A stretch of DNA of 28,170 bases. It comes from a virus. The stretch spans positions 10,740 to 38,909 of IMG/VR virus record IMGVR_UViG_3300023278_001976; one strand, written 5' to 3'. Position 1 is the first letter of the stretch. Each line of letters opens with the position of its first letter. The position numbers and the translations under genes are program-made. This document shows positions 768-17,981 of the stretch, piece after piece. The notes beneath the pieces were generated by a model. The model ran no database searches, had not been told where the DNA came from, and saw only the letters and a list, made by a program, of their open reading frames with translations.

Positions 768-1314
768 ACCGACTCGATACGTCGTAAATGGCGATTGTGG
801 CAACCAATGTACGCTGAATCCGAAGAAACTCGGTGAATCGCGGGCTGCCATGATTCTGGAGTGGTACGGTTCCGCCCTGAACGACAAAAAGATGGAAATC
901 CGGGCTCGTGAGGCCGGGATGAACATCACATACGGCTCATTTGGGCGTCATCGCCGTTTGCACCTCACGGAAGCCGATTCTATCGAGATGGACGAGTCCC
1001 TTGCGGAACTTGGCGACGTAGAGGCGCTGGACGAGATTCTTAAGCAAGGTCAGAAGAACATCCGGAACTGGAGGGTGACTCCCAGTGAGTACTTCAAGGC
1101 CATGGAACTCAAGTACAAACTGACTCAGGGCTCGACCATGGACGCGATGTATGCGGCGATGGCGAAGGCTGGTTCAGACGAGGGAGACGAAGATTCAGAG
1201 AGAGAAGATAGACCCGAAGACATGGAAGAGAATCGCGAAGGACTCAACACTCTTCGCGAGGACGTTTCTCTGGTCAGGCCCCCATCCGGGGCAGGAGACG
1301 TGGCTAAACAATAG
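751..1314 (+). CDS. terS: Probable terminase small subunit
   Basis: This 187-residue protein directly precedes the large terminase, the usual position of the small subunit that recognises viral DNA and regulates the motor. The N-terminal half (residues about 25-75) has a helix-turn-helix-like segment with basic residues (EIRAREAGMNITYGSFGRHR). The middle (residues about 85-130) is helical and could form the oligomerisation core. The C-terminal 50 residues are highly acidic and probably flexible. The start is GTG 751, overlapping the zinc-ribbon gene by 17 bases, with a purine-rich GAAGAAG just upstream; the next in-frame ATG (850) would cut into the HTH region. The last part of the gene overlaps the start of the large subunit. 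The assignment rests on position and HTH-like character, not on a recognised signature. Confidence 0.6.
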   Translation: MPRRLKPTRYVVNGDCGNQCTLNPKKLGESRAAMILEWYGSALNDKKMEIRAREAGMNITYGSFGRHRRLHLTEADSIEMDESLAELGDVEALDEILKQGQKNIRNWRVTPSEYFKAMELKYKLTQGSTMDAMYAAMAKAGSDEGDEDSEREDRPEDMEENREGLNTLREDVSLVRPPSGAGDVAKQ

Positions 1315-2638
1315 CATCTTCCACATGAACGTTCTTGTCCCCGGCAACCGCTGGGGCAAGACGTATGTCATTGCTATGAAGCACATTCACCAGAATGTCT
1401 TCAAAGTTGGCCTGCCCAAGATGTCTTCGCAGGAATGGCTTGCTCATCCCTATCAGACAGTATCCACCGCGCCCTCGTTCGACCAAGCGGGATTGGTCTA
1501 CAAGGCGGCGCGTCAACTTATGGCTACGGAGGCAATGAAACCCCTTGTCAAGAAATATCGTGCAACCCCATTTCCGTCGATTGAATTCTGGAATGGAAGC
1601 ATCATGCAAGTGCGCTCGCTGCACGATGATGCTAGATACATTGATGGTCACGGTTACCAGTTTCTGTCGGTCGATGAAGCAGGTTGGATTCCGAATCTAC
1701 GGAAACTGGTGGATTCGGTACTCCTCATGCGGCTCGCTGGAGGCGGAAACATCGACTTCATCGGGACCCCTAAAGGTAAGAATGACCTCTACTGGTACTA
1801 CATGCAAGGCTTTCGTGAAGTGGAAGGCTATTACTCCCAGCGTGGCAGCATCTTTGACAACCCGTACCTCCCTAAAGAAGACTTGGATATCCGCGCTCGA
1901 CTCCTATCTGGGTCAGATGAAAAACTCAAGCGTCAAGTTCTGTACGGTGACTTCATCGACTTCGAGGGGCTGGCATTCACTTCAGACCAGTTGGAAAATG
2001 CCATCCGAGATGACCGACCCATCGAAGTGCTCCCTCAACCTGAACACAGGTACGTTACCGCTTGGGACTTGGGACGCATTACAGACTTTACAGTTGGCGT
2101 CACTATGGACATCACCCGCCGACCTTGGGAAGTTGTTCGATACGACAGGCTGAATCGTGTCCCTTGGGAGCAGATTTACGACCTTATCGGGCGGGTTCGC
2201 GAGATGTACGGGTGTCGCTGGGCCTACATCGATGCTACCGGCCCACAGGGCGATGTTATCGAAGAAGAACTGCTGAAACGCAAAATCCCGGTCCAAGGGG
2301 TGAAAACAAACACGAAGAATGCTAAACTAGCCTTAATCAACGGAATTCAGGCTGCATTCGATGAGGGACGGCGCGTATTTGGCGAAACTCGGGTTCTTGA
2401 CCATACGGGCGCTCTGGTTACCACCCCTAGTCTGGAAGAACCGCTTTCAGGCGACTGGGGCATCATCCGCATGCCTCTTCACAAGCAAATGCGGAATGAA
2501 CTAGAAATGTATCAACTGGACGACAAAGACCTCGTGCAGGACTCTGTTTTCGCTCTGGGGCTGGCTGTGCTGGCTGCGAGGGAGATGGAGTACGTCAAGC
2601 CGCCCGTTATCGGCGGGCTTCACTGGGACGGTAAGTAA
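1151..2638 (+). CDS. terL: Terminase large subunit
   Basis: This is the ATP-driven packaging motor and headful nuclease, which docks on the portal. The ATPase domain shows the Walker A motif GNRWGKT (residues 65-71), Walker B FLSVDE (171-176, catalytic Glu176) and the coupling motif GTPKG (205-209). The RNase H-like nuclease domain shows the expected acidic residues: Asp306 in AWDLGRITDF, Asp361 in YIDATG and Asp464 in LVQDSVFA. At up to 495 residues it has normal length and appears intact. The start is uncertain. ATG 1151 lacks a Shine-Dalgarno site and overlaps the upstream gene by 164 bases, while the next in-frame ATG (1325) would remove the region around HPGQ just before Walker A. An ATT at 1193 with GAGGGAG six bases upstream is an alternative. 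It ends in TAATG, shared with the portal start. Confidence 0.95.
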   Translation: MRRWRRLVQTRETKIQREKIDPKTWKRIAKDSTLFARTFLWSGPHPGQETWLNNSIFHMNVLVPGNRWGKTYVIAMKHIHQNVFKVGLPKMSSQEWLAHPYQTVSTAPSFDQAGLVYKAARQLMATEAMKPLVKKYRATPFPSIEFWNGSIMQVRSLHDDARYIDGHGYQFLSVDEAGWIPNLRKLVDSVLLMRLAGGGNIDFIGTPKGKNDLYWYYMQGFREVEGYYSQRGSIFDNPYLPKEDLDIRARLLSGSDEKLKRQVLYGDFIDFEGLAFTSDQLENAIRDDRPIEVLPQPEHRYVTAWDLGRITDFTVGVTMDITRRPWEVVRYDRLNRVPWEQIYDLIGRVREMYGCRWAYIDATGPQGDVIEEELLKRKIPVQGVKTNTKNAKLALINGIQAAFDEGRRVFGETRVLDHTGALVTTPSLEEPLSGDWGIIRMPLHKQMRNELEMYQLDDKDLVQDSVFALGLAVLAAREMEYVKPPVIGGLHWDGK

Positions 2639-4320
2639 TGGCAACGGACCTTAAGGACATCACGTGGGCGTTCGTTACGGAGCAGGTGGAACGCCTGACG
2701 GCTGAGAACTCTCAGCGCAACGGCGAATACGACCTTTCCCGCAAGCGCGTGGATGGCATGCTGTGGGGGGACACTACTAACCCGACCCCGGATAACCGCT
2801 ACTCGTTGCCCGTGAACTATCTCATGCCCATTACTGAGAAGTTCGTTCAGTTGCTGATGGGCCGACAGCCGGGAATCCAAGTCATGCCCTCTGGTACGGA
2901 AGAGGACTCCCGGCGCCACGCCGAGAAACTCGAAGGCGTGCTCTACTCGACGTGGGACATGAACGATGCCCATGAACTGTTCCAGCGCGTGGCGTGGGAC
3001 AGTTTCGTGTTACGCCGGGGAATCGTGTACTACGGGTGGAACAAGGACGACAAGCGTGTCACGTACACCTACGTGACCCCGGACGACTTCTATCCCGAGT
3101 ACGATGGTGAGTCTATCTACCATTGCATCCTCCTGCATCGGCGTCACGTCGATGCCCTGAGGGAAGAGTATCCCCAGTTCGCTGCGGACATCGACCCTGA
3201 CCCCACGGCGCAACTGGCTCAAATCTACGGGCAGGACCAGCCCCGCCTGAACCAGACCAACTACGTCACGGTCTACGACTACTACGACAAGCATGGTAAC
3301 TGGGCGCGTACGACTGGCGACATCATGCTCAACAAGATGAACCTTGGCTACCCCGTCAAGGAGGTGCCCTTCATCGAGTTCCCCTATCACCCCAGCAATG
3401 GGAACCGGGAACCCAAGAACGGTATCGACCAGTTGGTCGAGTTGGTTCAGTACCTGAGCCAGTTGGTGAGCCAGAAGGCTGACATCATCCGTACGTACGC
3501 CAACCCTACCATCCTTGACGAGATGAGCGGTCAGGCGCCCGAAGAGATTCGCCGCGCTGTAGCAGCGGAAGGCTCGGTCTTGCCTGTTGCTCGCGAGGGC
3601 AATATTCGGTTCCTGAACTGGGATGGGCAGACGCCTAGCATCGATGAGCAGATTGAACTCATTCAGGACGTGATTTTCGACCTGAGTGGCAAGCCACGTA
3701 GCGCGTTCGGACAGACTGTCACGAACCAGTCCGGGGTTGTGACCAACCTTGCGCTGACTCCTACGCTACAATCTAATGAGGCACATGAGACGCTTTGGGG
3801 AAAGCGCCTCTCCCACCTGAACCGTAGGAGCCTCGAACTCATCGAGCACTTCGGTAGCAAGAATATGGTCTTCCGTGGGCGTCAGCCTATCGGTAAAGAC
3901 CTTGGCTCGACTCGTCTCTTTGACCTTCAGTTCGATGCGAAAGAAATCGCGGGTTGGTACGAGTCGCGCATCAAGTGGCCGTCTGCCATTCGGACAGACG
4001 ACCCGGTTTACGTCCAGAACATTCTGAGCCAGTTGACAGCGGACCCCCCGTCCATCTCACTGTACACGGCTCTTGAACTTCTGGGGCATGAGGATGTCGA
4101 AGCCGAAATCGATAGGATTCTGGAACAGAAGGAAGACCCGCGTCTGAGCCCCGAGACAGTAGCGACTAACAGTGCTACTGCCTTGGAGGGTGCGCCGGGA
4201 GTCCTACCGGGCGAACTTTCTGGAGCAGGAGCCTTCGGGCCTGACGAGGGTGGCGAACCGTCGCTCCCCGGTGAGGCACTACAGGCATCAGCGTCACCGG
4301 CCCTTGAAGAACTGAGTTAG
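2638..4320 (+). CDS. Portal protein
   Basis: The portal forms the dodecameric ring at one capsid vertex through which DNA enters and leaves, and it binds the terminase and the tail adaptor. The 560-residue product has the standard size and the order of segments typical of portals. These are an N-terminal helical region with YLMPITEKFVQLLMGRQPG, a wing/clip region with HELFQRVAWDSFVLRRGI and YYGWN, and a stem/crown region with PFIEFPYHPSNGNREPKNG and QLVQYLSQLVSQKADI-like helices. The last 60 residues (about 500-560) are acidic and rich in Pro, Gly and Ala, and are probably disordered. ATG 2638 overlaps the terminase stop (TAATG), implying coupled translation. The giant gene begins two bases after its stop. 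Confidence 0.88.
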   Translation: MATDLKDITWAFVTEQVERLTAENSQRNGEYDLSRKRVDGMLWGDTTNPTPDNRYSLPVNYLMPITEKFVQLLMGRQPGIQVMPSGTEEDSRRHAEKLEGVLYSTWDMNDAHELFQRVAWDSFVLRRGIVYYGWNKDDKRVTYTYVTPDDFYPEYDGESIYHCILLHRRHVDALREEYPQFAADIDPDPTAQLAQIYGQDQPRLNQTNYVTVYDYYDKHGNWARTTGDIMLNKMNLGYPVKEVPFIEFPYHPSNGNREPKNGIDQLVELVQYLSQLVSQKADIIRTYANPTILDEMSGQAPEEIRRAVAAEGSVLPVAREGNIRFLNWDGQTPSIDEQIELIQDVIFDLSGKPRSAFGQTVTNQSGVVTNLALTPTLQSNEAHETLWGKRLSHLNRRSLELIEHFGSKNMVFRGRQPIGKDLGSTRLFDLQFDAKEIAGWYESRIKWPSAIRTDDPVYVQNILSQLTADPPSISLYTALELLGHEDVEAEIDRILEQKEDPRLSPETVATNSATALEGAPGVLPGELSGAGAFGPDEGGEPSLPGEALQASASPALEELS

Positions 4321-4322
4321 CC

Positions 4323-7300
4323 GTGCCTTACGGTGTAACGGGCACCGGGCATTGGGAGGGGTCGTCTAGCGGAATTCCCTATTGGGTCGAGGACCCCGTT
4401 CAGCCCCCGGCGCCCCCGAAGCCCAAGCGTACGACTAACAAGTTTGGCGGTCCCAAGGGCACGAAGAAGGATGCTCAGGGACGCAGCCCCAAGCAGCGGC
4501 GGCAGGCTGGCCGGAATACCGACTCAGAGTCGGTGGAGTCGAAGAATTCTGCCGTAGCGGCGAATACCCAGCGTAAGATAGATAAGCGCGCCCGCGCGGC
4601 TGCTATTGCCCAAAAACGGGCGAAGGTCGAGGCCAAGCAAGCCCGTCGTCTGGCGAAGATTGAGAAGAAGGTCGCCAAGGCTGAGGCGGATGCGCAGGCG
4701 CTTATCGACGCTAACAACCAGAAGATTGCCGCGCTTAACCAGCAACGCGTTGCGGCGGCGAAGTCTGGTAATGTGACTGCCATTCGCGGTATCGGTAAGA
4801 CCATTGATAGCCTGTTGAGCCAGAACGCCGGTTATGTCGCGCAGGGTGCGGACGCGAAGGTCGGACTCGCTCGCACACTGGCGAATAACACTTTGCAGAA
4901 GGATACTGCCGCTGACGGGGAGCCATTGACTCCTGAGCAGAAGCGTCGGCGTAAGCGGCGTACTCGCAACGCCAAAGATGACATCATCGAGCAGTCTACG
5001 ATTCCTAGTTTGGCAGCCGTGGTTCACGGCGAGAAGCGTCCGGGTGACTTTGGTTTCGCGAAGAATATCGACCGCGCTCGTGCGGACTTGGAGGCGTACT
5101 ACGCCGCGCATCCGGAGCAGTACGATACCAAAATCCTGAACAAGTTGTCCGGCTATCTGGCCAAGCACCAGAAGTCCGTGAATGACGAGAATGAGGAGGC
5201 CGTGGCCGAGGGCGAGCGCCTCATGGCGGCGCTGAAGAAGTCCAAGCCGGGGAGTCCGGCCTATAACAAGGTTGTCAACAAAATCATCAAATTGAAGGCG
5301 AAGTTTGATGAGTCTAACGTTGCGCAGCAACTGGATTACTTGTACGGCAAGGATGCGTCCTCGAACATCAAGGGTACGAAGCGCAAGAAGCCGGGTGGCT
5401 TGATTGGTCGCTATGTGAAGTCGCAGGACGCGATGTACGACTCTGCGCAGCAGAGCCAGAACAACCAGATGTTCGGCCCCGGTCTGGGCGGGATTATCCG
5501 TGGCGCCCGTGCCAAGGGCAGGGCTGCGGTTCTCATCAGTGACGCTGAGAAAACGGCGCACATGATTGAGGACCCCGCCTTTCCGGGCGGGAAGCGCATG
5601 CAGACCACCGAAGAACGTCTCATCGAGATGTACGCGGAGCGTGGCGATGCCCTGACCGAAGAACAGGCTTTGGCACAGGGTCAGGCTGAGTTGATTGACT
5701 ATCGGAACCGTGGTCTTGAGTGGATGAATGACCCTGTGATGAAGCACATCGTTCCGTTGCTGGTCGAGAATGACATCAATACGAACCTTGACTTGACCGG
5801 GGACTTCGATGAAGTGGTGTTGGAGAAGAACATCATCGCCCCCGGCGTGAGTGCTGCGCAAGACGAGTTTAAGGCTGACCCCAGCAATTATGAGCCCGCA
5901 GGCGTGGCGCTCGGTATCTACAACTATGACCAGTATGGGCGCGACTCTGAGGGTGAGTACTTCATCCTGAACGACGGCACTATCGTGCGGCCCGGTGACC
6001 GTATGCCAGAGGGTCACGAGGAACCCCGGTGGAAGCATGGACCCGACCAGAGCAAGGCGCTGTGGGACAGGGTAGATTTCTTCGACCTTGCGCACAGTGA
6101 TGACCTGTTTGCCGTTCCGCTGAGCGTCCAGCAGGAGAAGGACGCGGCGCTGAAGTTGAAGAAGGGTCTTCAGGATATCGAAGACCAAGTGCGTGCGGAG
6201 TTCAGGGTACAGGACCCCGGTTTTATCGGGGACCTTCAGAGTGCGCATGTCGTTGGACCTATCGTGGACTTCTTCGGGGGTATCGGTGGCTTCTGGTTGG
6301 GCGCTGCGGACCTTCTCGCTCCCGGTGACATTGGCGTCGGCTTCTCGAATGACATCATCCAAGGCGAGCACGTTTCGAGCATCCTGACCGAGAAGATGTG
6401 GGACCCAGAGGCCGGTGAGGCTGGCGAGGAAGTCCTGAAGTTTGGTCCGAATCAGGGTTGGAAACAAGTAGAAGAGATGCCGAGTGGCGTGGGCTGGACC
6501 CACAATGTTCTTGACTTCTTGTTTGATACGCAGACCACTGCGGTCGGTAGGACTGCGGCAGATGGCTCTCAAGAGGGAGTTATCACTTGGGTGTACAATG
6601 TCGGCTTTGGCAATATCGAGATTACTTCGGTCCAGTCTGTAGAAGCCATTGAGCGCGAAGAAGAGATGCGTGAGGCCAACCTTGAGGGCCTCAAGTCAGG
6701 TGATTTTGGGCTCTATGGGCGCCTCGCGGGCACTAATCAGGCGGTTCAATTAGGTGGCGCAGCGGGTGGCATTAACTTCGCTATCGAGATTCTCACTGAC
6801 CCGACGAACGTCTTCCCCTTTGCCGCAGTTTCTAAGGGCGGGCTCCGGGCCGTCAAGGCTGGCGTGAAGGCTGGTCGAAATATTGATGGCTCGTTGGCCT
6901 CTCTGGCGAACGTTGTGGACGCCATGCGTGGTGCTGGCCGTATCGACCCTGCTACGGTGGAACTGGCTAATATCCGGAAGTTCCTTGATGATGTTGCCCC
7001 TAATGCTTCCCCCGACGAGGCGACCGAGGCCTTCGTGAGGGCCATTCACAACATGAACCAGAATCTTAAGGGTGACTCGGCCATCAACGACCTTGGCAAA
7101 CAACTGGACCATGCGCTGGGGTTGTCCGCGAAGGGCTATGATGCCGGTCAGATTCGTGCGTTTGCGGCTGAGCAGTTCGAGGCCGTCATTAAGAACCGTG
7201 GCTGGATTATCCACTCTCAGGCGGATGCTATTGCGCTGCAACTCGATGCTGCTGCTGCGGAGGTGGCTTTCGCTGCCGCCAACAACGCGGCCACTATCCA

Positions 7301-10300
7301 GCGCATCGGTATCCGGAACCAGAAAATCATCGATGATTTGTCCCGTATCGGGGAGCAGGCTCGCCGGAAGGTGTCTCCTGTGCGTGCGGGCCAAGAGGCG
7401 TTCGAGCGCGAAGCCCTCAAACTTGCGGACGAGATTCCCCTGAACAAACTGGAAGCGATGGCTGTCGAGGATGGGTTGTCCAAGTCTCGTAAGGCCCTTC
7501 TTGAACGCGCACGGGACTTGTCGCGGGAGCGGGCTGGCATCAAGGCTGGCGCGGTTACCAAAGAGGGCGCGAAGGGCCGAGTCATTCTGGACGAGAGCGC
7601 CTTTAAGGGTGCCAAGCGAGTGTCGAAGGCTGAAGCCGCTAGGGTACGCAAGGCTGAGGTGGATGCTCTGGCTGTTAGGAATCAGAAGGCGCGAGCGGCT
7701 CGGCTTGCCAAGCGGCGCGCCGCCGAGGCCGATGCTGCACGAGTTCGGAAGTCGCAGGCCCCTGCCGAGGGAATCCGTGCGCCACGCGTTAAGTCGGCGC
7801 AACAGAGCCTACCTGCTGGTTACATCGACCAAGCCAATCCCGCGTGGGCGCAGAAGAGTGGTGGGCCTCGCTTCTGGGACGAGTCGCTTGCTGCTGGTCG
7901 GGCTGGTGGCCGCACGATAGAGCAGAACGGCAGCGAGGCGCTGAATTTCGTGGAGTCTGTCGTGGAGCGGTTCGGCAAGTGGACCCACTCGGTCCCTGCG
8001 CGGAAGGCTATGACCAACCGTGGCGTGGCAAGAGTGTTCAAAGACCCCAAGGCTTTGAACGGTTCTGAGGGTCGGGCGCTCTATGCGGCATATATTCGTA
8101 ACGCTCCGGGCTTCCCGCCTAACGGGCGCTTGAACCGTGCGGGCGATACCATCACCGACCTTGATACGGGTGAAATCATCAAGTTGGCTGATACGGATGC
8201 CCCGTCCTTCGATGACTTCACTCGGATGTGGGCTGAGAGGGGCCGCAAGGGCGCCGCCAGCGTCTATGGTCCGGAGATTGCGGGCGCGTATGAGGACGCC
8301 CTTGCTCTCGGGCGTATCGGTGCCGAGAGCGCCTATGAGCGGACCGTTCAGTTCACGCTTCGCATGCAGTTCAACCCTAATGCTGGTGCGGATGAGGCGC
8401 TCCGCTATCTGGACGACATGGCGGCGTTTGGCGAGGACGCGAAGGTGTTTGTACGCGGGTTCTTCGCAGACGAAATCAACGCCTTCCACGCACAGGTTGG
8501 CGAGGCCGTTACGCGCTTGGGGCCGGGTGCCGAGGACCTCTTCGATGCGAGTATCGGTCGCTTGGCCCTGCGGATTGATGGCCCTCCTCAAAACCTTGCG
8601 GGGCGCGTGGTTGATGTAGGTCCAGCCGTGCGCAAGGCTGACGACCTTCTCGGTGCTCGCGAGGTGAACGTGGAAGCCATGGTCAACCGCGTCATTACCA
8701 ATCCCGAGGACCTTGCAAACACTCAGGCGCTTGCTCATTTGCTTGTCATTGCCAACCTGACCGGCGACCAGTGGGATGCTGCCGCGAAGGCGGCTCGTGC
8801 ATTTGGCAAGGCGTCTCATTCCTCGAAGACTGGCAAGGCAGCACGTGCCCTACGCGAGCAGATGTCTAAGGAAATGGAGGCTGTTGGCTATAAGGCTGGG
8901 CCTCGCCAGAAGGCGCCCGCCGTTAGTTTACATGGTCCAGAGATTGTGGATGATGTTGTTGCGCAGGATTTCATTCTTTATACTGGTGGCCGTAAGGGGC
9001 TTCAGGGTGCTGGTGATGCGAAGGAAACGACGCTTGGGCGTGGTATCTATCTTACGGATGAGACTTCTGCTGCTGGATATGCTAAGCGTCGTGCCCGTCC
9101 GTTAGCGCAAGGCGGGGATGAAGGTGAAGTTCGTCAGATGGTGGCCCCGGCTGGTAGGTATTTGGATTCACGCACGCAGCCGCTTCCGCAACCCATTCTT
9201 GATGAGTGGGTGACTTATTTGCGAACCGTGATGGCCGATGAAAGTCGAGGGTGGGCGGTGCAGGCTCGTGCGGCGTCGACGTTAGAGAACTTTGCTGAAG
9301 CCTCGAAAAAGCCTCTTTCTCGTGATTTGGTCGAAGGGTTTGATGCTGACTTTACCAAGATGCTTCAAAAACGCGGTTATGTTGGACTGTTGGCTAAAGA
9401 AGGTGGCGAAGGTGCAGATGTTGGGACGCATCTGAGCGCACTTGTGTTTGATTCAAAATCGGTTCGCCAAACTGAGTCGTCGTTTATCCCCGATGCCCAG
9501 CGCATTGCCAGCCAGCAGCACGCTGCCTTCCTGAATGAGATGGGTCAGTCGGAGACGCAGTGGCTTCAGGCTCAGTTGCGCCGGAACACGGGTCGCATCA
9601 ACAACAGCAAGACAGTCAAGCAAGAGCGCGCGTGGCTGCTGCAACAGAATGATGAGTTGCGTCTTGCGATTGATGACATCAAGATTAGGAAGGAGGGCGG
9701 TACCTACAAGCCGCCTCGCGCGACTCAGGAGCAGGCCATGAACGGCGCGGAGAACGTGCGCGAGAAGGTCAAGGGGGTCATCCCCCCGAAGGTGCATGCT
9801 TTCTTCGCTCGGACCTTGGAGCAGGCGAAGGTGGAGTTGGCGCGCTCTATCCGCGTGTCCGTGAAGAACTCGACCGTCAGGGGCGCGCGCAATGCGGAGT
9901 TGGACGAGTTCATGTCGTGGTTCCCCATTGCGAAGTACGCTGACCTGAACGACCGGGTGGGTCGTGCCATTCAGAAGGTGCAGGGCAAACGTGAGTCCTC
10001 GCTGAACCTGCGCCGTCCTCCGGGCGATGAACTCCCTGATGAGATTCTGCGGACGCTCTCCGACGAGCACCCCCTTATCCTGAAAGCCAAGGTGGATGAG
10101 TTGGCGGCGTTCGCTCGGGAGAATAATCTTCAGGAGATTCCAGTGGAGATGTACGACCGCCTTCGTACGCTTATCCAGCCCCAGCAGTCTCGTTACAACC
10201 GTACGCAGGTGCTTATCAAGGCCGCTGACGGCCAGAGTGACGAGGCGTATCTTGCGATGCGTAGGGTGGCTACGGACCAAGACGCCGTGGACAACATCGC

Positions 10301-13300
10301 GTGGATGCTACGCGAGAATCCCGGCATGACCGTGGATGAGGCCCAAGAGATTCTGGCTGCCTCGTACTACACCAGCGGGCGCGTGAAGCCTGTCCCGAAG
10401 GTTATCACGCCCTCTGATGCTGATGTGCTGGGCAAGTACTTCGAGCACCTGACGGGCTCCAATATCGATGATATCGAAGGCGTCAAGTCAGCCCTGAGTG
10501 CGCACGGTACGAAGCCCAACTTCGACAAGAAGTACCGCTTCAGCCAGCATCAGGAGCGAACGGGTGAGTGGTCGCCGCGCGCTGCTGCTGACGTGGATGA
10601 GACGCGGCCTGCGTGGAGTCTGGACGAAGAGAAGAAGTGGTTTATGGACCGCTATGGCGAGGCGCCTGCTTGGGTGACGGACGAGGCCATCACTAGTGGC
10701 AGGGCCTTCAAGACTCGCCAGTCGTACAATGAGACGATGGAGCGTGTTGGTAGTTATGATGAGCGGCAGCGCCTGCTGAAGTCGTTGGTGGAAGACGACC
10801 CGAAGAGTCTGGAGGACATCGCTCACGGCAACATCCAGAAGGGTATCAAGCCCGTGAAGGATAAGGCTCGTGAGCGCCTGTGGAACGTGCAGCGGTATGG
10901 CGACCGTGTGGGCAGGGTGGACCCGGATGGCACGGTACATATGACGGATATGCCGTGGCTGATGAACTCTGATGAACTGGCTGAGTTGGGCATGTCGAGT
11001 GTGGATGATGCTGGCGCGGTGTTCTTCAAGGCTGATGATGTGGCCGCGATGAAGAAGGCTATCGCGGACATCGTGGAGAAGCATGCCGATGATTTCGAGC
11101 GGGCGCTGAGCGTTCCCGATGATTCGTACAAACTTGTTCCCTCATCTGCCGTCCATGAGTACTCCTATCGGATGATGCTGGAACTGGGGTCCTCGCAACC
11201 GTGGCGCAAGGCGTACCAGTGGATGGACAACAACCATTTCTTGGCCGCGTGGTCAGCGGTCTGGACGGGCCTCATTACTGGTAACCCGGCGTGGATGGTG
11301 AGCAACTTCGTGGACAACCCCACCAAGGCGCTGTACTTTGCGTTTACTAACCCGTTCTCTCGTCAGGCGAGCAAGAGTTCGCATGAGGCTATTCGCTCTC
11401 TTGATGACTTGGGTATTAGTTCTACGGCGTACTTCGATGAGATTGCTGAGCGGGGTATCCGTACGCGGCTGAATCCCACCACGTCGTATGGTAAGGCGGA
11501 TGCCCTGCGTGGTCTTTGGGACCTTGCCACTCTGCGTCCTGTCTCCATGAAGGCTGTGTCGGAGCCTGAGATGTGGGCCAAGACGAAGTTGGCTCGGCGT
11601 ATCTACACTGGCCTAGAGGAAGAACTGACCCCCGGACTCCGGGCTATGGGGCTGAGTGACGAGAACGTTAAGTTGGCATTGCTCAAGGCGACGAAGGACA
11701 ACATCAACAGGATGTTCCCGATTCTGGAGAACGCGGGCTTCGCGCAGAAACTGCTGAACAAGATTCTCCCGTTTATCTCGTACAACGCGAAGAACAAGAT
11801 TCTCTGGATTACCGAGGTGATGGACCACCCGTGGATGATTTACGTGCTCGACCAAGCGAAGGGCGGGCTCATCGAGTACAACGAACGCAACTGGCGTGAA
11901 GACCATCCGGGTGAGCGGTTTATGCCTGAGCATCTCTTTAATCAGATTCGTATTCCGGGGACTGATATCCATATTGACCTTGGGATGTTCACTGACTTTG
12001 CCCGTGGCCGCTTCCCCTTGTGGGAGGCGCAGACCGTTGGCTCCATCCTCAATAATGGCGTCCGTCCACTGCCTTCGCAGGTGGCTTTCCTTGAGTCGGC
12101 TGGCTGGAATCTCTTCGGTGCCTTTGGACGGCAGCGTTGGGAGAAGGTGCTGAATGAGGATGGCACGTGGAGTGGTGAGGTCAAGCGGGTTACCGTGCCA
12201 CCGGGTACGCCGTGGGGCGATAGCGCCTTCGACCTGTGGAAAGACTTGGCGTGGCCCGCCAGTTTCATCGAGGCTGTTAACAAGGCTGCTCAGAATGATG
12301 AGAGGGGCCTTGCGGATGTCGTGCGGATTATCGGCTCGCTGGCTTCGTTCGGGGAGTTTGCTGAGCCTAGTCGTTACTTCTATGCCAATCAGCAGTATCA
12401 CTTGCTGTACGACTCAGACCCCGAGTTGGCCCGTGACTGGCTGAACGATAGTGAGGAAGGCAAGTTCCTCAAGTCTATGTGGGATGCGCAGTTCACGAAG
12501 CCTACCCATACGGCGGTGGACCCGGCTATCCTCACGATGCTGAATCTCGAAGGCCCGATGCCTAACCCGATGGACCCGAAGGTCATTCGTAAGGGTTGGT
12601 ACATGGACCAGAGCCCCGAGTACCGTGCCATGCTGGGTGACGGGTGGAACGAACTGTCGTGGGCTAAGGAATATTGGGACGAACAGTACGACTTGGCGAA
12701 GACCGATGCAGAGCGCGAGCGGCTTCAGTTGCTGCGCCGCACGTGGTACTCCGACTTCTACCATCGCAACCCGCATCTCTGGCAGTACATTGGCATGGGC
12801 ATGACCGAGGGCGAGTACATGGAGGAGGTGGCGAAGAACCAGATGGAGGACGAGGTGACTCGTTTCTACTCTGTGTTTGACTGGGACCTGAAGCCCGAGG
12901 GTGAGAAGGCAGGCGCCATATGGGAGAAGAACCGCGAAGAGTATCTTAAGAAGAACCCTGCGCTACTTAAGTACTTTGAGGAAGCGAAGAGTCAGTACGA
13001 CCAGAACCGCGATGATGTCAACGCGGCGTGGGACCAAGCGTTCGATAATCTGGAAGACATGAAGCACCTGCGCGACGAGGCGTGGGAGATTGACGACCCG
13101 CGAGCCGCTCAAGCCCTGACTGAGTTGGGGGACATCTTCGACAACTCCTTCAACTGGGAGTCGTTCGGGGTGGACGAGGATAGCAAGTCTGGCGTGAAGA
13201 TGGGCAAGGACTTGCTGGGGCTGTCCATCAAGAAGGTCCTTCGCGAGGGTGGCGACGTGAAGGACGCGTGGTACGGTCAGCGGATGCAGGCCGTGTCTGA

Positions 13301-14546
13301 GAAGGCTGGGGACGAGCGGGACCGCTGGTTCGGCATCATGGACAAGAACCCTGACCTCAAGAACATTTACTTCGAGAAGCACCCCGACAAGGCCGTGTCG
13401 TGGCATCGTGATAGGGAGTACGCCCAGTTCTGGGGTCGCTTCTCCCGACTGGCTGATAAGGGTAAGTGGGACGCGGCGTGGGACTCTTGGGCTGAGGCGC
13501 CTCAACGGGTGAAGGACCGTTACCGCCAAGAGAGCCCCGCGAAGTACCGTTCCTTCGTGCAGTCCTATCAGTACCAGAACTACATGGGCCGCTGGATGGC
13601 CTACTTCGACCGGGGCGATAAGGCCGGTGCCTTCGCCTACTTCGATAGCCTCCCCCAGTGGGTGAAGGACAAGTACTTCGCGAACCACCCCGGTAGCAAG
13701 ATGAACCGGGGACAGGGTTCTGCCTACGTCAGCAACCTCAATGCGGTGTTCGACCAGATTGATAAGGGCAATTGGGACGCTGCTGAGAAGTTGTGGAACG
13801 CCATGCCCGCGTGGATGCGCCGTCGTTACTATGCGAACAACCCTTCGTCCACCCTCTTCAATGGCAAGGCCAAGGGTGGCGGTATCTCTGACGCGAAGTA
13901 CAAGCAATACATCCGCCACATGAAGCAATGGGTAGACCTTCTGCGTGACGGCAAGGACAAGGAAGCCGACAAGTTCTTCAAGTCCATGCCCGAGTGGATG
14001 CAGGACTTCTATCTGAAGGCGCATCCCGACAAGGCGTTGCTCAAGGAAACCCTGAAGATGCAGTCGCTGCTTCAGGTGTACTTCGGTGCTAACAAGGCTA
14101 GCCAGCGTGCGATGTTGGAGAACAACCCGGCTCTTGCTCGGTGGCTGAATGCGAACGACACGAAGGCCGCTCGTATCAATGCCATCATGTTCGCCTACAG
14201 CAGACTCCCTGATGACCCGTGGTTGAAGCGTGTCTACCGTGAGAAGTACCCTGAAATCTTCTCGAAGGAAGCGAAGGGCGAGCAGACCAAGAAGAAGATT
14301 CAGGACATCCTCGATGACAACCCCGAGTTGCGTCCTCTCTGGCAGAAGTGGCTGGAGGATATCAACTATACGCTGTCCGAGGCTGAGAAGCACGCCCTGA
14401 AGCGCCCGAAGCAAGTCGAGGTGGACCACGAGTATCAGCGTAGGTCCAGCCATGCGGGCATGAGTGCTGCCGAGATTGGCGAGGATATCGATGAAATCGT
14501 TAAACACGAGGATACATCGACCATTAGAGACGCTCGTATCTCCTAA
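4323..14546 (+). CDS. Giant multidomain (polyvalent-type) probable virion protein
   Basis: A single uninterrupted 3407-residue protein lies between the portal and decoration genes. It starts at GTG 4323, two bases after the portal stop, with only a weak ribosome site. In order it shows: a Pro/Lys-rich N-terminus (1-60); a Lys/Ala/Arg coiled coil (about 78-160); a Gly-rich hydrophobic segment (about 643-668) and another with ILTDPTNVFPF (about 810-846); a second very basic coiled coil (about 1003-1156); an ADP-ribosyltransferase-like domain (about 1534-1722); a hydrophobic AWSAVWTGLITGNPAWMVSN region (about 2301-2332); and Trp/Asp-rich helical repeats (about 3032-3240). The ART module and the overall size resemble the phage 'polyvalent' proteins that enter cells with the DNA. 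Packaging in the capsid and ejection are inferred from position and architecture. No N4-type RNA polymerase, lysozyme or protease motif was recognised. The coding sequence looks intact. Confidence 0.85.
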   Translation: MPYGVTGTGHWEGSSSGIPYWVEDPVQPPAPPKPKRTTNKFGGPKGTKKDAQGRSPKQRRQAGRNTDSESVESKNSAVAANTQRKIDKRARAAAIAQKRAKVEAKQARRLAKIEKKVAKAEADAQALIDANNQKIAALNQQRVAAAKSGNVTAIRGIGKTIDSLLSQNAGYVAQGADAKVGLARTLANNTLQKDTAADGEPLTPEQKRRRKRRTRNAKDDIIEQSTIPSLAAVVHGEKRPGDFGFAKNIDRARADLEAYYAAHPEQYDTKILNKLSGYLAKHQKSVNDENEEAVAEGERLMAALKKSKPGSPAYNKVVNKIIKLKAKFDESNVAQQLDYLYGKDASSNIKGTKRKKPGGLIGRYVKSQDAMYDSAQQSQNNQMFGPGLGGIIRGARAKGRAAVLISDAEKTAHMIEDPAFPGGKRMQTTEERLIEMYAERGDALTEEQALAQGQAELIDYRNRGLEWMNDPVMKHIVPLLVENDINTNLDLTGDFDEVVLEKNIIAPGVSAAQDEFKADPSNYEPAGVALGIYNYDQYGRDSEGEYFILNDGTIVRPGDRMPEGHEEPRWKHGPDQSKALWDRVDFFDLAHSDDLFAVPLSVQQEKDAALKLKKGLQDIEDQVRAEFRVQDPGFIGDLQSAHVVGPIVDFFGGIGGFWLGAADLLAPGDIGVGFSNDIIQGEHVSSILTEKMWDPEAGEAGEEVLKFGPNQGWKQVEEMPSGVGWTHNVLDFLFDTQTTAVGRTAADGSQEGVITWVYNVGFGNIEITSVQSVEAIEREEEMREANLEGLKSGDFGLYGRLAGTNQAVQLGGAAGGINFAIEILTDPTNVFPFAAVSKGGLRAVKAGVKAGRNIDGSLASLANVVDAMRGAGRIDPATVELANIRKFLDDVAPNASPDEATEAFVRAIHNMNQNLKGDSAINDLGKQLDHALGLSAKGYDAGQIRAFAAEQFEAVIKNRGWIIHSQADAIALQLDAAAAEVAFAAANNAATIQRIGIRNQKIIDDLSRIGEQARRKVSPVRAGQEAFEREALKLADEIPLNKLEAMAVEDGLSKSRKALLERARDLSRERAGIKAGAVTKEGAKGRVILDESAFKGAKRVSKAEAARVRKAEVDALAVRNQKARAARLAKRRAAEADAARVRKSQAPAEGIRAPRVKSAQQSLPAGYIDQANPAWAQKSGGPRFWDESLAAGRAGGRTIEQNGSEALNFVESVVERFGKWTHSVPARKAMTNRGVARVFKDPKALNGSEGRALYAAYIRNAPGFPPNGRLNRAGDTITDLDTGEIIKLADTDAPSFDDFTRMWAERGRKGAASVYGPEIAGAYEDALALGRIGAESAYERTVQFTLRMQFNPNAGADEALRYLDDMAAFGEDAKVFVRGFFADEINAFHAQVGEAVTRLGPGAEDLFDASIGRLALRIDGPPQNLAGRVVDVGPAVRKADDLLGAREVNVEAMVNRVITNPEDLANTQALAHLLVIANLTGDQWDAAAKAARAFGKASHSSKTGKAARALREQMSKEMEAVGYKAGPRQKAPAVSLHGPEIVDDVVAQDFILYTGGRKGLQGAGDAKETTLGRGIYLTDETSAAGYAKRRARPLAQGGDEGEVRQMVAPAGRYLDSRTQPLPQPILDEWVTYLRTVMADESRGWAVQARAASTLENFAEASKKPLSRDLVEGFDADFTKMLQKRGYVGLLAKEGGEGADVGTHLSALVFDSKSVRQTESSFIPDAQRIASQQHAAFLNEMGQSETQWLQAQLRRNTGRINNSKTVKQERAWLLQQNDELRLAIDDIKIRKEGGTYKPPRATQEQAMNGAENVREKVKGVIPPKVHAFFARTLEQAKVELARSIRVSVKNSTVRGARNAELDEFMSWFPIAKYADLNDRVGRAIQKVQGKRESSLNLRRPPGDELPDEILRTLSDEHPLILKAKVDELAAFARENNLQEIPVEMYDRLRTLIQPQQSRYNRTQVLIKAADGQSDEAYLAMRRVATDQDAVDNIAWMLRENPGMTVDEAQEILAASYYTSGRVKPVPKVITPSDADVLGKYFEHLTGSNIDDIEGVKSALSAHGTKPNFDKKYRFSQHQERTGEWSPRAAADVDETRPAWSLDEEKKWFMDRYGEAPAWVTDEAITSGRAFKTRQSYNETMERVGSYDERQRLLKSLVEDDPKSLEDIAHGNIQKGIKPVKDKARERLWNVQRYGDRVGRVDPDGTVHMTDMPWLMNSDELAELGMSSVDDAGAVFFKADDVAAMKKAIADIVEKHADDFERALSVPDDSYKLVPSSAVHEYSYRMMLELGSSQPWRKAYQWMDNNHFLAAWSAVWTGLITGNPAWMVSNFVDNPTKALYFAFTNPFSRQASKSSHEAIRSLDDLGISSTAYFDEIAERGIRTRLNPTTSYGKADALRGLWDLATLRPVSMKAVSEPEMWAKTKLARRIYTGLEEELTPGLRAMGLSDENVKLALLKATKDNINRMFPILENAGFAQKLLNKILPFISYNAKNKILWITEVMDHPWMIYVLDQAKGGLIEYNERNWREDHPGERFMPEHLFNQIRIPGTDIHIDLGMFTDFARGRFPLWEAQTVGSILNNGVRPLPSQVAFLESAGWNLFGAFGRQRWEKVLNEDGTWSGEVKRVTVPPGTPWGDSAFDLWKDLAWPASFIEAVNKAAQNDERGLADVVRIIGSLASFGEFAEPSRYFYANQQYHLLYDSDPELARDWLNDSEEGKFLKSMWDAQFTKPTHTAVDPAILTMLNLEGPMPNPMDPKVIRKGWYMDQSPEYRAMLGDGWNELSWAKEYWDEQYDLAKTDAERERLQLLRRTWYSDFYHRNPHLWQYIGMGMTEGEYMEEVAKNQMEDEVTRFYSVFDWDLKPEGEKAGAIWEKNREEYLKKNPALLKYFEEAKSQYDQNRDDVNAAWDQAFDNLEDMKHLRDEAWEIDDPRAAQALTELGDIFDNSFNWESFGVDEDSKSGVKMGKDLLGLSIKKVLREGGDVKDAWYGQRMQAVSEKAGDERDRWFGIMDKNPDLKNIYFEKHPDKAVSWHRDREYAQFWGRFSRLADKGKWDAAWDSWAEAPQRVKDRYRQESPAKYRSFVQSYQYQNYMGRWMAYFDRGDKAGAFAYFDSLPQWVKDKYFANHPGSKMNRGQGSAYVSNLNAVFDQIDKGNWDAAEKLWNAMPAWMRRRYYANNPSSTLFNGKAKGGGISDAKYKQYIRHMKQWVDLLRDGKDKEADKFFKSMPEWMQDFYLKAHPDKALLKETLKMQSLLQVYFGANKASQRAMLENNPALARWLNANDTKAARINAIMFAYSRLPDDPWLKRVYREKYPEIFSKEAKGEQTKKKIQDILDDNPELRPLWQKWLEDINYTLSEAEKHALKRPKQVEVDHEYQRRSSHAGMSAAEIGEDIDEIVKHEDTSTIRDARIS
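8922..9491 (+). other. Embedded ADP-ribosyltransferase-like domain (ART-PolyVal type)
   Basis: This is a domain inside the giant gene, residues about 1534-1723. LYTGGRKGL (Tyr1553, Gly1555) followed by LGRGIYLTDETSAAGYAK (Gly1572, Tyr1576, Thr1578) matches the pattern seen in phage ART-PolyVal domains, where a His/Tyr-Thr-Gly strand is followed by G-x-GIY-(L/F)-T and a helix starting with Ala. The end (SALVFDSKSVRQTESSFIPD) resembles the closing strand of that family, 'lVFd...iR'. ARTs transfer ADP-ribose from NAD to a target. I did not identify the catalytic acidic residue with certainty, so activity is not assured. G+C by hand count is about 52% over 8941-9480, against 62% in three sampled flanking lines. 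Confidence 0.65.
13416..14040 (+). repeat. Protein-level tandem repeats at the C-terminus of the giant protein
   Basis: At least four units begin near residues 3032, 3086, 3135 and 3194, with a period of 49-59 residues. The shared pattern is an N-terminal helix with aromatics, then D-(K/R)-G-(x)-(W/K)-(D/A)-A, a second helix ending in (S/A)-(M/L)-P-x-W-(V/M), then (K/R)-x-x-Y-x-x-x-x-P. Clear examples are SLPQWVKDKYFANHP, AMPAWMRRRYYANNP and SMPEWMQDFYLKAHP. Weaker related units occur just before (KNPDLKNIYFEKHP) and after (LENNPALARWL). The repeats are degenerate in DNA, so they are old rather than recently duplicated. I do not recognise a named repeat family; a helical-pair solenoid is inferred. 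Confidence 0.6.
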
Positions 14547-14623: not shown

Positions 14624-15148
14624 ATGGCACGAATTAATACGGTAGACCGCCGTAACCCGACGCTGGGCGCTGGGGCCGTTCGTATCGTGGGTGGCGCGTT
14701 CGTGGAGTCTGATGGCTCTGCTGCGGGTACCTATAACCTTGATGTGTTCATTCCAGCGTATGCTGTTATCCTTGACGTGATTTGCTTCACGAACGTTGTG
14801 TTCGGTGCGGGCACATCTGCTGTCTTGGATGTCGGTACGTGGTCTGTCGATTCAGGTGTTATTGATACGGTTATTGACGTGGACGACATCTTCGATGCTG
14901 TCAACGTTAAGGCTACAGACCTCGTGCATGGCGAGTCTATTTCCCTGAACTTCGCAGGCGGCAAGCATGGCAACATGGCTGGCGTCGTGGCGACTCAGGA
15001 TGCGATGATTGACCAAGTGGACATCGTTGACCGCTTCGTCAAGTTCCAGTTGGTGACGGTTGGTACTGTTGCTACTACGGGTCGCGTGTATACGTACATC
15101 GTGTACGGTGTTCCTGAGATGGACCCCGTTACATTCACCGCCACTTAA
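14624..15148 (+). CDS. Probable capsid decoration / structural protein
   Basis: A 174-residue protein, almost entirely beta-strand in character, rich in Val, Asp, Gly and Thr with very few Lys or Glu. The N-terminus (TVDRRNPTLGAGAVRIVGGAF) leads into alternating hydrophobic strands. AAAGGTG lies 5 bases before ATG 14624, and the gene is the first after the strong promoter at 14550. Position between portal/giant and scaffold/capsid, together with its own promoter, suggests a high-copy head protein. No named family is recognised with certainty; a beta-sandwich decoration protein is the best inference. Followed 15 bases later by the head-fibre-like gene. Confidence 0.6.
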   Translation: MARINTVDRRNPTLGAGAVRIVGGAFVESDGSAAGTYNLDVFIPAYAVILDVICFTNVVFGAGTSAVLDVGTWSVDSGVIDTVIDVDDIFDAVNVKATDLVHGESISLNFAGGKHGNMAGVVATQDAMIDQVDIVDRFVKFQLVTVGTVATTGRVYTYIVYGVPEMDPVTFTAT

Positions 15149-16239: not shown

Positions 16240-16408
16240 GGCGTATAGCCTTCATACGGGACGAGAGGTGATGTCCAAACCCGGAGAGATTCGCGGCGCG
16301 GGCACCTGCTAGTACAGCACCGGAGGGGAACCTTCGCGCTGACTGCGTACCAGCCCCGGCCAATCGAACCGGCGAGGAAATCCCCGCTGGGCAACAGTGG
16401 AGTTTGGA
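16240..16408 (+). other. Structured 5' leader of the scaffold gene (possible ncRNA element)
   Basis: This G+C-rich gap carries no convincing ORF. Potential helices are CGTAT/ATACG (16242-16246/16254-16258), TGCT/AGCA (16307-16310/16316-16319), and an outer CCAGC/GCTGG stem (16350-16354/16386-16390). The outer stem encloses CCGG/CCGG (16356-16359/16369-16372) and a GCGAGG/CCCCGC hairpin (16372-16377/16382-16387) that competes with part of it. The ribosome site GGAG (16399-16402) follows within 9 bases, so folding could affect translation of the scaffold. No known riboswitch or ribozyme was matched. Confidence 0.35.
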
Positions 16409-16984
16409 ATGCCAGACACGGATGACTTCGAGAATCAGGACAGTGGAGACGACAAGGGTACCCAAGACAAGGGCACCACGGATGATGGTAAGCAAGACTC
16501 AGGCGCAGCGGAGTCGAGCAAGTCATCGGAGGATACACAGTCTGGGGACGACCTTCGGAAGATGCAGAGTGAGCGCGATAAGGAAACTGCTCGTGCGAAC
16601 AAGGCTCAGAAGGAAGTTGACAAGATGAAGGCCGCTTCTGCGAAGAGTGCGGGAAGCACCGAGGTGCCACCTCAGGTGCAAGAGTGGATTGTTGCGGCAC
16701 AGTCGCGAACGCGGGAGACTTTGTACGAGTCTAATCCCAAGTTCAAGGCTTTCGGCATCGACCCTACCCTCATTAGCGGAGATACTCCCGCTGAGATGAC
16801 GGCTTCGGCCAAGTCTCTGTCCGAGTTTGTTGAAACTCTCGAAGGCACAGTGCGCGATTCAGTGTTGAAGGAACACGGTTTCGACCCCGCACCTAAGGCT
16901 TCGGCGGCAATGGGCCGCAAGGACTTCAACGCGATGGACACCAAGGAGTTCGACGCAATCGTTGAAGAAGCCCTTCGGGGCTAA
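16409..16984 (+). CDS. Capsid scaffolding protein (probable)
   Basis: A 191-residue protein that would guide assembly of the procapsid and then leave it. The first 50 residues are extremely acidic and Ser/Gly/Thr-rich (DSGDDKGTQDKGTTDDG). Next comes a charged coiled coil (about 50-85, SERDKETARANKAQKEVDKM), a helical middle, and a C-terminal segment with DFNAMDTKEFDAIVEEAL that could contact the capsid protein. This domain order and the position directly before the capsid gene are typical of scaffolds. I chose ATG 16409 (GGAG 6 bases upstream) over GTG 16397, which would place the ribosome site inside the gene. Confidence 0.75.
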   Translation: MPDTDDFENQDSGDDKGTQDKGTTDDGKQDSGAAESSKSSEDTQSGDDLRKMQSERDKETARANKAQKEVDKMKAASAKSAGSTEVPPQVQEWIVAAQSRTRETLYESNPKFKAFGIDPTLISGDTPAEMTASAKSLSEFVETLEGTVRDSVLKEHGFDPAPKASAAMGRKDFNAMDTKEFDAIVEEALRG

Positions 16985-17009: not shown

Positions 17010-17981
17010 ATGGCTCTACAGACTACCGGCTCTGCCGGTCTATCTGATGAGATGAAGACCTTCTATGACCGGATGCTACTTGAGCGCACGGTCCCCAATC
17101 TCCTGCATGGACGTTGGGGCCAGACCAAGAGGATTCCGGCCAATGGTGGTCGTATCATCGAGTGGCGTAAGTTCAGTGCTCTAAGCACTGCGACTACAGC
17201 GCTGGTCGAAGGTTCTCTCTACACCGACCTCAAGGACCTGACGGTCACCGCTATTACTGGCACAGTCGCCCAGTATGGTGACGCGGTTGGTTTCTCGGAC
17301 CTCGTGTCCGTGGTCGCTATCGACCCTATCTTGGCAGAGACTACCAAGATTCTCGCTGAGCAGGCCGCTCAGACCATCGATGAACTTGTTCGCGATGTTC
17401 TGGTCGCCGGTACCACAGTGGAGTATGCGAATCAGGCTGCGAACCGCGCTGCGGTTGCTGCGAATGATGACTTCTCTGCGATGGACGGCGCGGGCTCGAC
17501 TCAGACCGGCGGCTCCCTCGCGGACCTCCGACTCATTAGCCTTACGCTCGAACTGAACCGCGCTCGCAAGATTGGCGGCTTCTGGCAGGTGATTACTCAC
17601 CCGCGAGTTATGTTCGATATTCAGGCTACGACTGAGTGGCGAGAACTCCAGTTGTACAATCAGACCAACCGAATCGTTGACGGTTCTGTGGGCGAGATTT
17701 ACGGCTTCAAGTTCTGGGTGACTGATGTCGCTAAGGTGTTCACCGCTGGTGGCGCTGGCTCGATTGACGTTTACACCGCTTTGGTGTTTGGTCAGGACGC
17801 GTTCGGCTCGGTCGAACTGTCCGGTCATAACCTACAGACCATTTACAAGCCTCTGGGCTCGGCGGGTACTAGCGACCCACTGAATCAGCAGCAAACAATG
17901 GGCTGGAAGGTTACCTTCGGAACGAAGATTCTCCAGCAAGCGTTCATGCTCCGCTATGAGTGTGCGGTCAGCACTTCGTAA
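17010..17981 (+). CDS. Major capsid protein, N4-gp56 type
   Basis: The 323-residue product has the features of the N4-gp56 major capsid family, an HK97-fold shell protein. The N-terminus has LLERTVPNLLHGRWGQTKRIP. It is followed by the conserved GGRIIEWRKFSAL...ALVEGSLYTDLKDLTVTAITGTVAQYGD block (residues about 46-92). A long spine-like helix follows (ETTKILAEQAAQTIDELVRDVL), and the C-terminal half carries ITHPRVMFDIQ, GEIYGFKFWVTD and ALVFGQDAFGSVEL. Length is slightly short of typical N4-gp56 members but no segment is obviously missing. AAAGG lies about 9 bases before ATG 17010. It follows the scaffold by 25 bases and is trailed by strong hairpins, in keeping with very high expression. Confidence 0.9.
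   Translation: MALQTTGSAGLSDEMKTFYDRMLLERTVPNLLHGRWGQTKRIPANGGRIIEWRKFSALSTATTALVEGSLYTDLKDLTVTAITGTVAQYGDAVGFSDLVSVVAIDPILAETTKILAEQAAQTIDELVRDVLVAGTTVEYANQAANRAAVAANDDFSAMDGAGSTQTGGSLADLRLISLTLELNRARKIGGFWQVITHPRVMFDIQATTEWRELQLYNQTNRIVDGSVGEIYGFKFWVTDVAKVFTAGGAGSIDVYTALVFGQDAFGSVELSGHNLQTIYKPLGSAGTSDPLNQQQTMGWKVTFGTKILQQAFMLRYECAVSTS

What the first reader, a model, noticed from the sequence alone, without database searches (positions are those of the whole stretch)
4323..14546. A 3407-residue multidomain protein between portal and capsid genes
Seen: one intact 10.2-kb frame taking up over a third of the window, with two basic coiled coils, hydrophobic Gly-rich segments, an embedded ART-like domain and a C-terminal repeat array. 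Established: phage 'polyvalent' proteins combine many effector domains in giant polypeptides, and podoviruses such as N4 carry a protein of about 3500 residues that is ejected with DNA. Inference: this is a virion-packaged, ejected effector. Much of its length matches no domain I recognise, so it may hold undescribed modules.
Basis: partly seen in the sequence, partly recalled or inferred. Interest (0 to 1): 0.8.

Follow-up and report, generated by a model that had tools for sequence, protein, structure and literature searches.

The report
Giant cysteine-free ejected phage protein family
A bacterial virus carries an unusually large protein, made without a single cysteine, whose relatives sit in the same gene position in six other viruses; by every indirect sign it is stored in the virus head and threaded into the host cell with the DNA, which makes it a new, previously unnamed family of a known kind of infection protein.

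Summary
The 3407-aa frame (4323-14546) is real and intact: GTG start 3 nt after the portal stop, 380 kDa. It matches nothing in Pfam, PHROGs, NCBIfam, PDB or 50,697 phage records. IMG/VR holds six relatives (about 2770, 3727, 3927, 4283, 4345 and at least 2748 aa), all upstream of scaffold and capsid and, where the contig shows it, directly after terL-portal. They share a C-terminal core of ~1640 residues; the N-terminal half diverges strongly and the middle is a variable slot. Flanking terL/portal are 48-57% identical, the giant only ~25%. The protein has zero cysteines; the family has 2 in over 25,000 residues, while other proteins on the same contigs carry ~5 per 1000. Cysteine absence marks the large ejected proteins of N4 (vRNAP), T7 (gp15, gp16) and P22 (gp7, gp16, gp20), and this phage has an N4-gp56-type capsid. 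Sister phages carry, in the same position, giants with real polyvalent domains (SNF2, methyltransferase, ART-PolyVal, LPD38). Best reading: a head-packaged, ejected protein with a conserved delivery core and variable cargo. The ART domain failed every test; no enzyme domain was found, RNA polymerase included. Virion packaging itself is untested.

The parts
4323..14546 (+). giant gene, 3407 aa, GTG start, zero cysteines, 380 kDa
   Evidence: homologues
4353..4397 (+). N-terminal GHW...WVEDP motif, seen by eye also in P0007 (L038) and G002; not supported by profile comparison (residues 1-80 gave no hit above noise)
4503..4772 (+). first basic charged-helix stretch (residues 61-150)
6180..6290 (+). 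weakly conserved island (residues 620-656), overlapping the only strongly hydrophobic Gly-rich segment (643-661)
6717..7094 (+). conserved island with DPTN..P motif (residues 799-924)
   Evidence: hhalign E 1.5e-4
7563..7802 (+). second basic charged-helix stretch (residues 1081-1160)
8247..8483 (+). weak collinear island (residues 1309-1387)
   Evidence: score 35 against at most 23 for shuffles
8913..9467 (+). ART-like segment (residues 1531-1715) in the variable slot; motif-level resemblance only, not supported by any profile test
9540..14471 (+). conserved C-terminal core (residues 1740-3383), homologous in all six relatives as far as their contigs reach
11235..11837 (+). motif pair W..L..NPA.M..N..D and N.ILPF.SY..KN......HP (residues about 2305-2505), resembling by eye the PF motif of the LPD38-bearing giant; the LPD38 profile itself does not match
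13227..14372 (+). C-terminal all-helical repeat array (residues 2969-3350), about seven three-helix units
1151..2638 (+). terminase large subunit
   Evidence: phrog_2 1.5e-23
2638..4320 (+). portal protein
16397..16984 (+). scaffold-like protein
   Evidence: phrog_2592, 0.002; homologues just before the capsid gene in relatives
17010..17981 (+). N4-gp56 family major capsid protein

Best explanation
The gene encodes an internal virion (ejection) protein of a short-tailed phage. It would be made late with the portal, packaged in the head and, at infection, threaded at least partly unfolded through portal and tail ahead of or with the DNA, refolding in the envelope or cytoplasm. The conserved C-terminal ~1640 residues (helical, ending in a basic repeat array) are the shared packaging and delivery core; the fast-evolving N-terminal half and the central slot are lineage-specific cargo or envelope-spanning parts. 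Cysteine is excluded because disulfides would jam a chain that must unfold and pass through an oxidising compartment. Shown: gene, family, synteny, core, variable slot, cysteine exclusion. Inferred: packaging, ejection, unfolding, cargo role, the reason for the cysteine exclusion.
For: Zero cysteine in 3407 aa against 26-28 in about 5,000-5,300 aa of other window proteins (P about 2e-8); about 49 Cys codons expected from positional base composition, while Trp is abundant at 76. Six family giants: 2 Cys in 22,437 aa against 64 in 11,845 aa of neighbours; a seventh (G002) adds none. Ejected proteins of T7 (gp15, gp16), N4 (gp50) and P22 (gp7, gp20, gp16) have none, while large non-ejected virion proteins of the same phages have 3-11. 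N4-like papers attribute the lack of Cys in the injected vRNAP to passage into the host (PMC3715699, PMC2784036, PMC3915230). N4-gp56 capsid. Conserved order terL-portal-giant-scaffold-capsid. In sister phages the giant between portal position and capsid gene is a polyvalent protein: L119 LPD38 3e-23, SNF2 and methyltransferase-type domains; L118 ART-PolyVal 5e-21. Variable slot: relatives P0004 and G002 are 48% and 52% identical on either side of a ~160-aa module that only P0004 has.
Against: No proteomics; no homology to any protein shown to be ejected; no recognisable lytic, RNA polymerase or polyvalent domain. T7 gp14 has one Cys and relative P0007 has two, so the rule is not absolute. Some other virion proteins are Cys-poor (tail-region proteins of ~1000 aa with 1 Cys; N4 capsid with none). 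AlphaFold and Foldseek were uninformative for most of the chain. That the phage is short-tailed rests on its relatives, not on a micrograph.
Confidence: 0.8

Rival explanations
1. It is a polyvalent effector in the strict sense: several enzymatic domains (an ART among them) delivered to disarm the host early in infection.
For: Giants in the same position in sister phages have SNF2, methyltransferase, ART-PolyVal and LPD38 domains; residues 1531-1715 carry HG, GRGIY and VFD motifs like the H-Y-D ART clade described in PMC5512222; the segment falls in the variable slot.
Against: No enzymatic domain detected at E<=10 in slices; ART-PolyVal search misses; profile comparison probability 3%; single-sequence fold pLDDT 39, uninformative.
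Confidence: 0.35
2. It is a structural ejectosome component only (like T7 gp15/gp16): it lines or extends the tail channel across the envelope and carries no enzymatic cargo; the variable middle reflects envelope differences between hosts.
For: Predominantly helical with a helical repeat array; no enzyme domains; Cys-free like T7 gp15/gp16 and P22 gp16/gp20.
Against: Over twice the size of T7 gp16; sister phages use the same gene position for enzyme-bearing giants; module gain or loss in the middle suggests cargo.
Confidence: 0.4
3. It is a virion RNA polymerase of the N4 type.
For: Same size class (3407 against 3500 aa), Cys-free, N4-gp56 capsid.
Against: No match to Pfam, PHROGs or NCBIfam models, RNA polymerase families included, even at permissive cut-offs.
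Confidence: 0.04
4. It is a tape-measure protein of a long-tailed phage.
For: Large, helical, coiled; tape measures are also ejected (own knowledge); weak BFVD matches include tape measures at E 0.01-1, probability 0.2 or less.
Against: Lies between portal and scaffold, not after a tail-tube gene; no tail-tube gene was recognised; related cultured phages with this capsid family include named podoviruses; length varies 2770-4345 aa among relatives with otherwise conserved structural genes.
Confidence: 0.05

Closest known systems
N4 virion RNA polymerase gp50 and its Schitoviridae relatives
   Same: single polypeptide of about 3500 aa, no cysteine, phage with N4-gp56 capsid; N4 gp50 is packaged and injected (literature)
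   Different: no RNA polymerase domain, no sequence similarity, gene between portal and scaffold instead of beyond the capsid gene
Phage polyvalent proteins (Iyer et al. 2017, PMC5512222), including the giants of Pseudoalteromonas phage Y3 and of contigs L118/L119
   Same: giant, virion-gene context, portal-terminase phages, same position in L118/L119, modular middle
   Different: no recognised effector or LPD domain; strictly Cys-free, whereas the L117-L120 giants are Cys-depleted but not free (7-15 Cys)
T7 gp15/gp16 and P22 gp7/gp16/gp20 ejection proteins
   Same: cysteine-free virion proteins, largely helical (T7 gp16, review PMC8954989)
   Different: much smaller, encoded as several proteins downstream of the capsid gene, no sequence similarity
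StenR_269 putative vRNAP and Zobellviridae internal virion proteins (PMC10747016)
   Same: large, Cys-free, helical; StenR_269 shares the capsid family
   Different: no detectable homology; different gene position

Membership tests
N4 virion RNA polymerase | single-subunit T7-like RNA polymerase domain | tested here: not met
   no Pfam/PHROGs/NCBIfam match
N4 virion RNA polymerase | about 3500 aa and devoid of cysteine | tested here: met
   3407 aa, 0 Cys; N4 gp50 3500 aa, 0 Cys
N4 virion RNA polymerase | packaged in the virion and injected | not testable with these tools
   needs proteomics
Polyvalent proteins (Iyer 2017) | two or more recognisable, biochemically distinct domains in one polypeptide | tested here: not met
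   no credible domain at Pfam E<=10 in slices
Polyvalent proteins (Iyer 2017) | LPD-type associated domain (LPD38 tested) | tested here: not met
   PF18857 absent in G000 and the tested family records (G001, G003, G004, G006, G009), present in G013 and Pascal
Polyvalent proteins (Iyer 2017) | encoded among virion genes of a portal-terminase phage | tested here: met
ART-PolyVal ADP-ribosyltransferases | match to the PF18760 profile | tested here: not met
ART-PolyVal ADP-ribosyltransferases | H (strand 1), Y (strand 2), D (strand 5) triad | tested here: inconclusive
   H1537, Y1576, D1710 look like the triad, but hhalign gives probability 3%
Podovirus ejection proteins (functional class) | absence of cysteine (common sign of the class, not a formal definition) | tested here: met
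Podovirus ejection proteins (functional class) | present in the mature virion, absent from particles after DNA release | not testable with these tools
   needs proteomics of full and emptied particles
Tape measure proteins | located after tail-tube and tape-measure chaperone genes | tested here: not met
   lies between portal and scaffold in all relatives where the flanks are visible

The most novel reading that the evidence does not exclude
A previously unnamed family of giant ejection proteins (about 2770-4345 aa) that couples one conserved C-terminal delivery core to an exchangeable, fast-evolving central cargo of undescribed domains, with near-complete exclusion of cysteine as a sequence signature that can predict ejected phage proteins from sequence alone.
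Probability: 0.4. Interest if true: 0.7.

Novelty: new variant of a known kind. Interest (0 to 1): 0.5.

Why it matters
Ejected proteins decide the first seconds of infection, but they evolve fast and are usually annotated 'hypothetical'. This family gives a conserved core to recognise them, a natural comparison of cargo slots, and support for a simple, testable sequence sign: total loss of cysteine in a very large late protein. Earlier papers used that sign for N4-type RNA polymerases and for StenR_269; here it also holds for T7 and P22 ejection proteins and for a family with no RNA polymerase domain. The ejection-protein review (PMC8954989) and the polyvalent-protein paper (PMC5512222) do not contain the word cysteine in the text held. 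If confirmed, the core could serve as a marker of proteins naturally delivered into bacteria by short-tailed phages.

Tried and rejected
ART domain: Pfam whole and in slices, ART-PolyVal genome search, alignment to true ARTs, hhalign and a single-sequence fold, none supportive. LPD38 in the core: rejected by profile despite a similar PF motif. Homologues in cultured phages: tblastn of both halves against 50,697 records, nothing at E<=1. Homologues in bacterial genomes: none. Solved structures: none by sequence or profile. AlphaFold on the last 1167 residues: mean pLDDT 51.5, only the C-terminal array usable; Foldseek gave no significant match. LPD38 in sister contigs with other Cys-free large frames: none. 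Homology between this core and the L117-L120 giants, FlowerPower gp9 or the L014 giant: none detected except a weak match of L014 to P0002 at the PF motif (E 0.03).

Full report
What was checked. The window is bases 10740-38909 of a 38.9-kb viral record. The frame 4323-14546 is intact and codes for 3407 residues, 380 kDa, pI 6.2 overall, with strongly basic stretches at residues 1-400 (pI 10.1), 1001-1200 (10.6) and 2960-3407 (9.3). It starts with GTG 3 nt after the portal stop codon. The neighbours are a terminase large subunit, a portal, a scaffold-like protein and an N4-gp56 family capsid.

Is it known? No match in Pfam, PHROGs, NCBIfam or PDB sequences at a meaningful level, none in 50,697 phage records by tblastn of both halves, none in one genome for each of 84,980 prokaryote species.

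The family. Searching IMG/VR with the capsid protein and then with a core alignment gave six relatives: P0002/L036 4345 aa, P0007/L038 4283 aa, P0008/L116 3927 aa, P0003/L037 3727 aa, P0004/L003 at least 2748 aa, and G002, whose gene is split by the contig ends and adds up to 2770 aa. The last was analysed in separate pieces and not joined. Two short contigs (L007, L041) and L002 hold further C-terminal fragments. Order is conserved: terL (51-55% identical to the window's), portal (48-57%), giant, scaffold (29-34%), capsid (55-63%), then the homologues of window genes 18503, 19214 and 21362; terL and portal are visible only where the contig extends that far. The giant itself is only about 25% identical in its core.

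Anatomy. Residues 1740-3383 form a core found in all relatives (hhalign probability 96-99% for its start, blastp E 1e-93 over most of it). Upstream there are collinear islands: 620-656 (weak), 799-924 with a DPTN motif (hhalign E 1.5e-4), 1309-1387 (weak, but above shuffles). The N-terminal GHW..WVEDP motif was noticed by eye only. Between about 1390 and 1740 lies a slot without detectable counterpart; it holds the ART-like segment. In two closer relatives, P0004 and G002, the flanks of such a slot are 48% and 52% identical while one carries about 160 residues where the other has about 15: direct evidence of module gain or loss. The C-terminal end is an all-helical repeat array, about seven three-helix units, modelled at pLDDT mostly 70-83.

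Cysteine. P0001 has no cysteine in 3407 residues; about 49 cysteine codons would be expected from position-specific base composition, and Trp, a similarly rare residue, occurs 76 times. Six family giants hold 2 Cys in 22,437 residues against 64 in 11,845 residues of other same-strand frames on those contigs (the binomial P of about 1e-49 treats residues and relatives as independent and is only indicative). As controls, the ejected proteins T7 gp15 and gp16, N4 gp50, and P22 gp7, gp20 and gp16 have zero, while T7 gp12, N4 gp65 and the P22 tailspike have 5, 11 and 8; T7 gp14 has one. That these proteins are ejected is established knowledge; the counts were made here. The giants of Pascal, FlowerPower, StenR_269, Y3 and ctQWt234, whose phages share the capsid family, are also Cys-free. 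The link between missing cysteine and entry was proposed for N4-like RNA polymerases (PMC2784036, PMC3715699, PMC3915230, citing Kazmierczak 2002) and used for StenR_269 (PMC10747016).

Sister phages. Four IMG/VR phages with about 38-42% identical capsids have giants of 3267-4099 aa directly after a 505-535-aa gene in portal position and upstream of the capsid gene. L119 has LPD38, SNF2-type helicase and methyltransferase-type domains; L118 has ART-PolyVal and a methyltransferase. Their cysteine is depleted 3- to 7-fold but not absent. So this position is used for polyvalent proteins elsewhere, although no homology to our core is detectable.

ART. The segment 1531-1715 shows HG (1537), GRGIY (1572-1576) and VFD (1708-1710), which line up with true ARTs and would fit the H-Y-D triad of PMC5512222. 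Against this, Pfam at E<=10, the ART-PolyVal search and hhalign (probability 3%) give no support, and the single-sequence fold is uninformative. The claim is left as unproven.

Conclusion. An ejected, head-packaged giant is the best explanation (0.8). Whether it is an enzyme-bearing effector (0.35) or mainly an envelope-spanning ejectosome part (0.4) is open; these two are alternatives within the main reading, so their probabilities are not additional to it. It is filed as a new family within a known functional class, not as a member of the N4 vRNAP or polyvalent families, whose defining domains were tested and not found.

Noticed in passing
window 21362-22165: A 267-aa protein in the tail-gene cluster reads like a PD-(D/E)XK-type nuclease (WEADFLFPQFKIWLEVQGAYFH...); homologues at the same place in relatives. 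No profile support.
   Followed up: partly
window 14624-15148: A 174-aa gene lies between giant and scaffold here, but its homologues in L003, L009, L037, L038 and L048 lie after the capsid gene: a local rearrangement.
   Followed up: partly
L118 104-9907, L119 7000-19299, L117 8843-19027, L120 46-10473: Giants of 3267-4099 aa in capsid-related phages, two of them with polyvalent domains; Cys depleted 3- to 7-fold rather than absent, most Cys between residues 800 and 2600. Could the constraint be weaker for their hosts?
   Followed up: partly
L117 7232-8839, L118 9879-11486, L119 5453-6988, L120 10486-12003: The 505-535-aa protein directly upstream of these giants is also entirely Cys-free; the one tested has no family match. 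It sits where the portal lies in the window.
   Followed up: no
L014 4494-9359: Another phage with a related capsid (35% identical) has a Cys-free protein of about 1600 aa upstream of the capsid gene with a similar N.IVPF motif but no clear homology to the core.
   Followed up: partly
P0007 (L038) residues 3183 and 3354: The only two cysteines of the whole family, both in the core of one relative.
   Followed up: no
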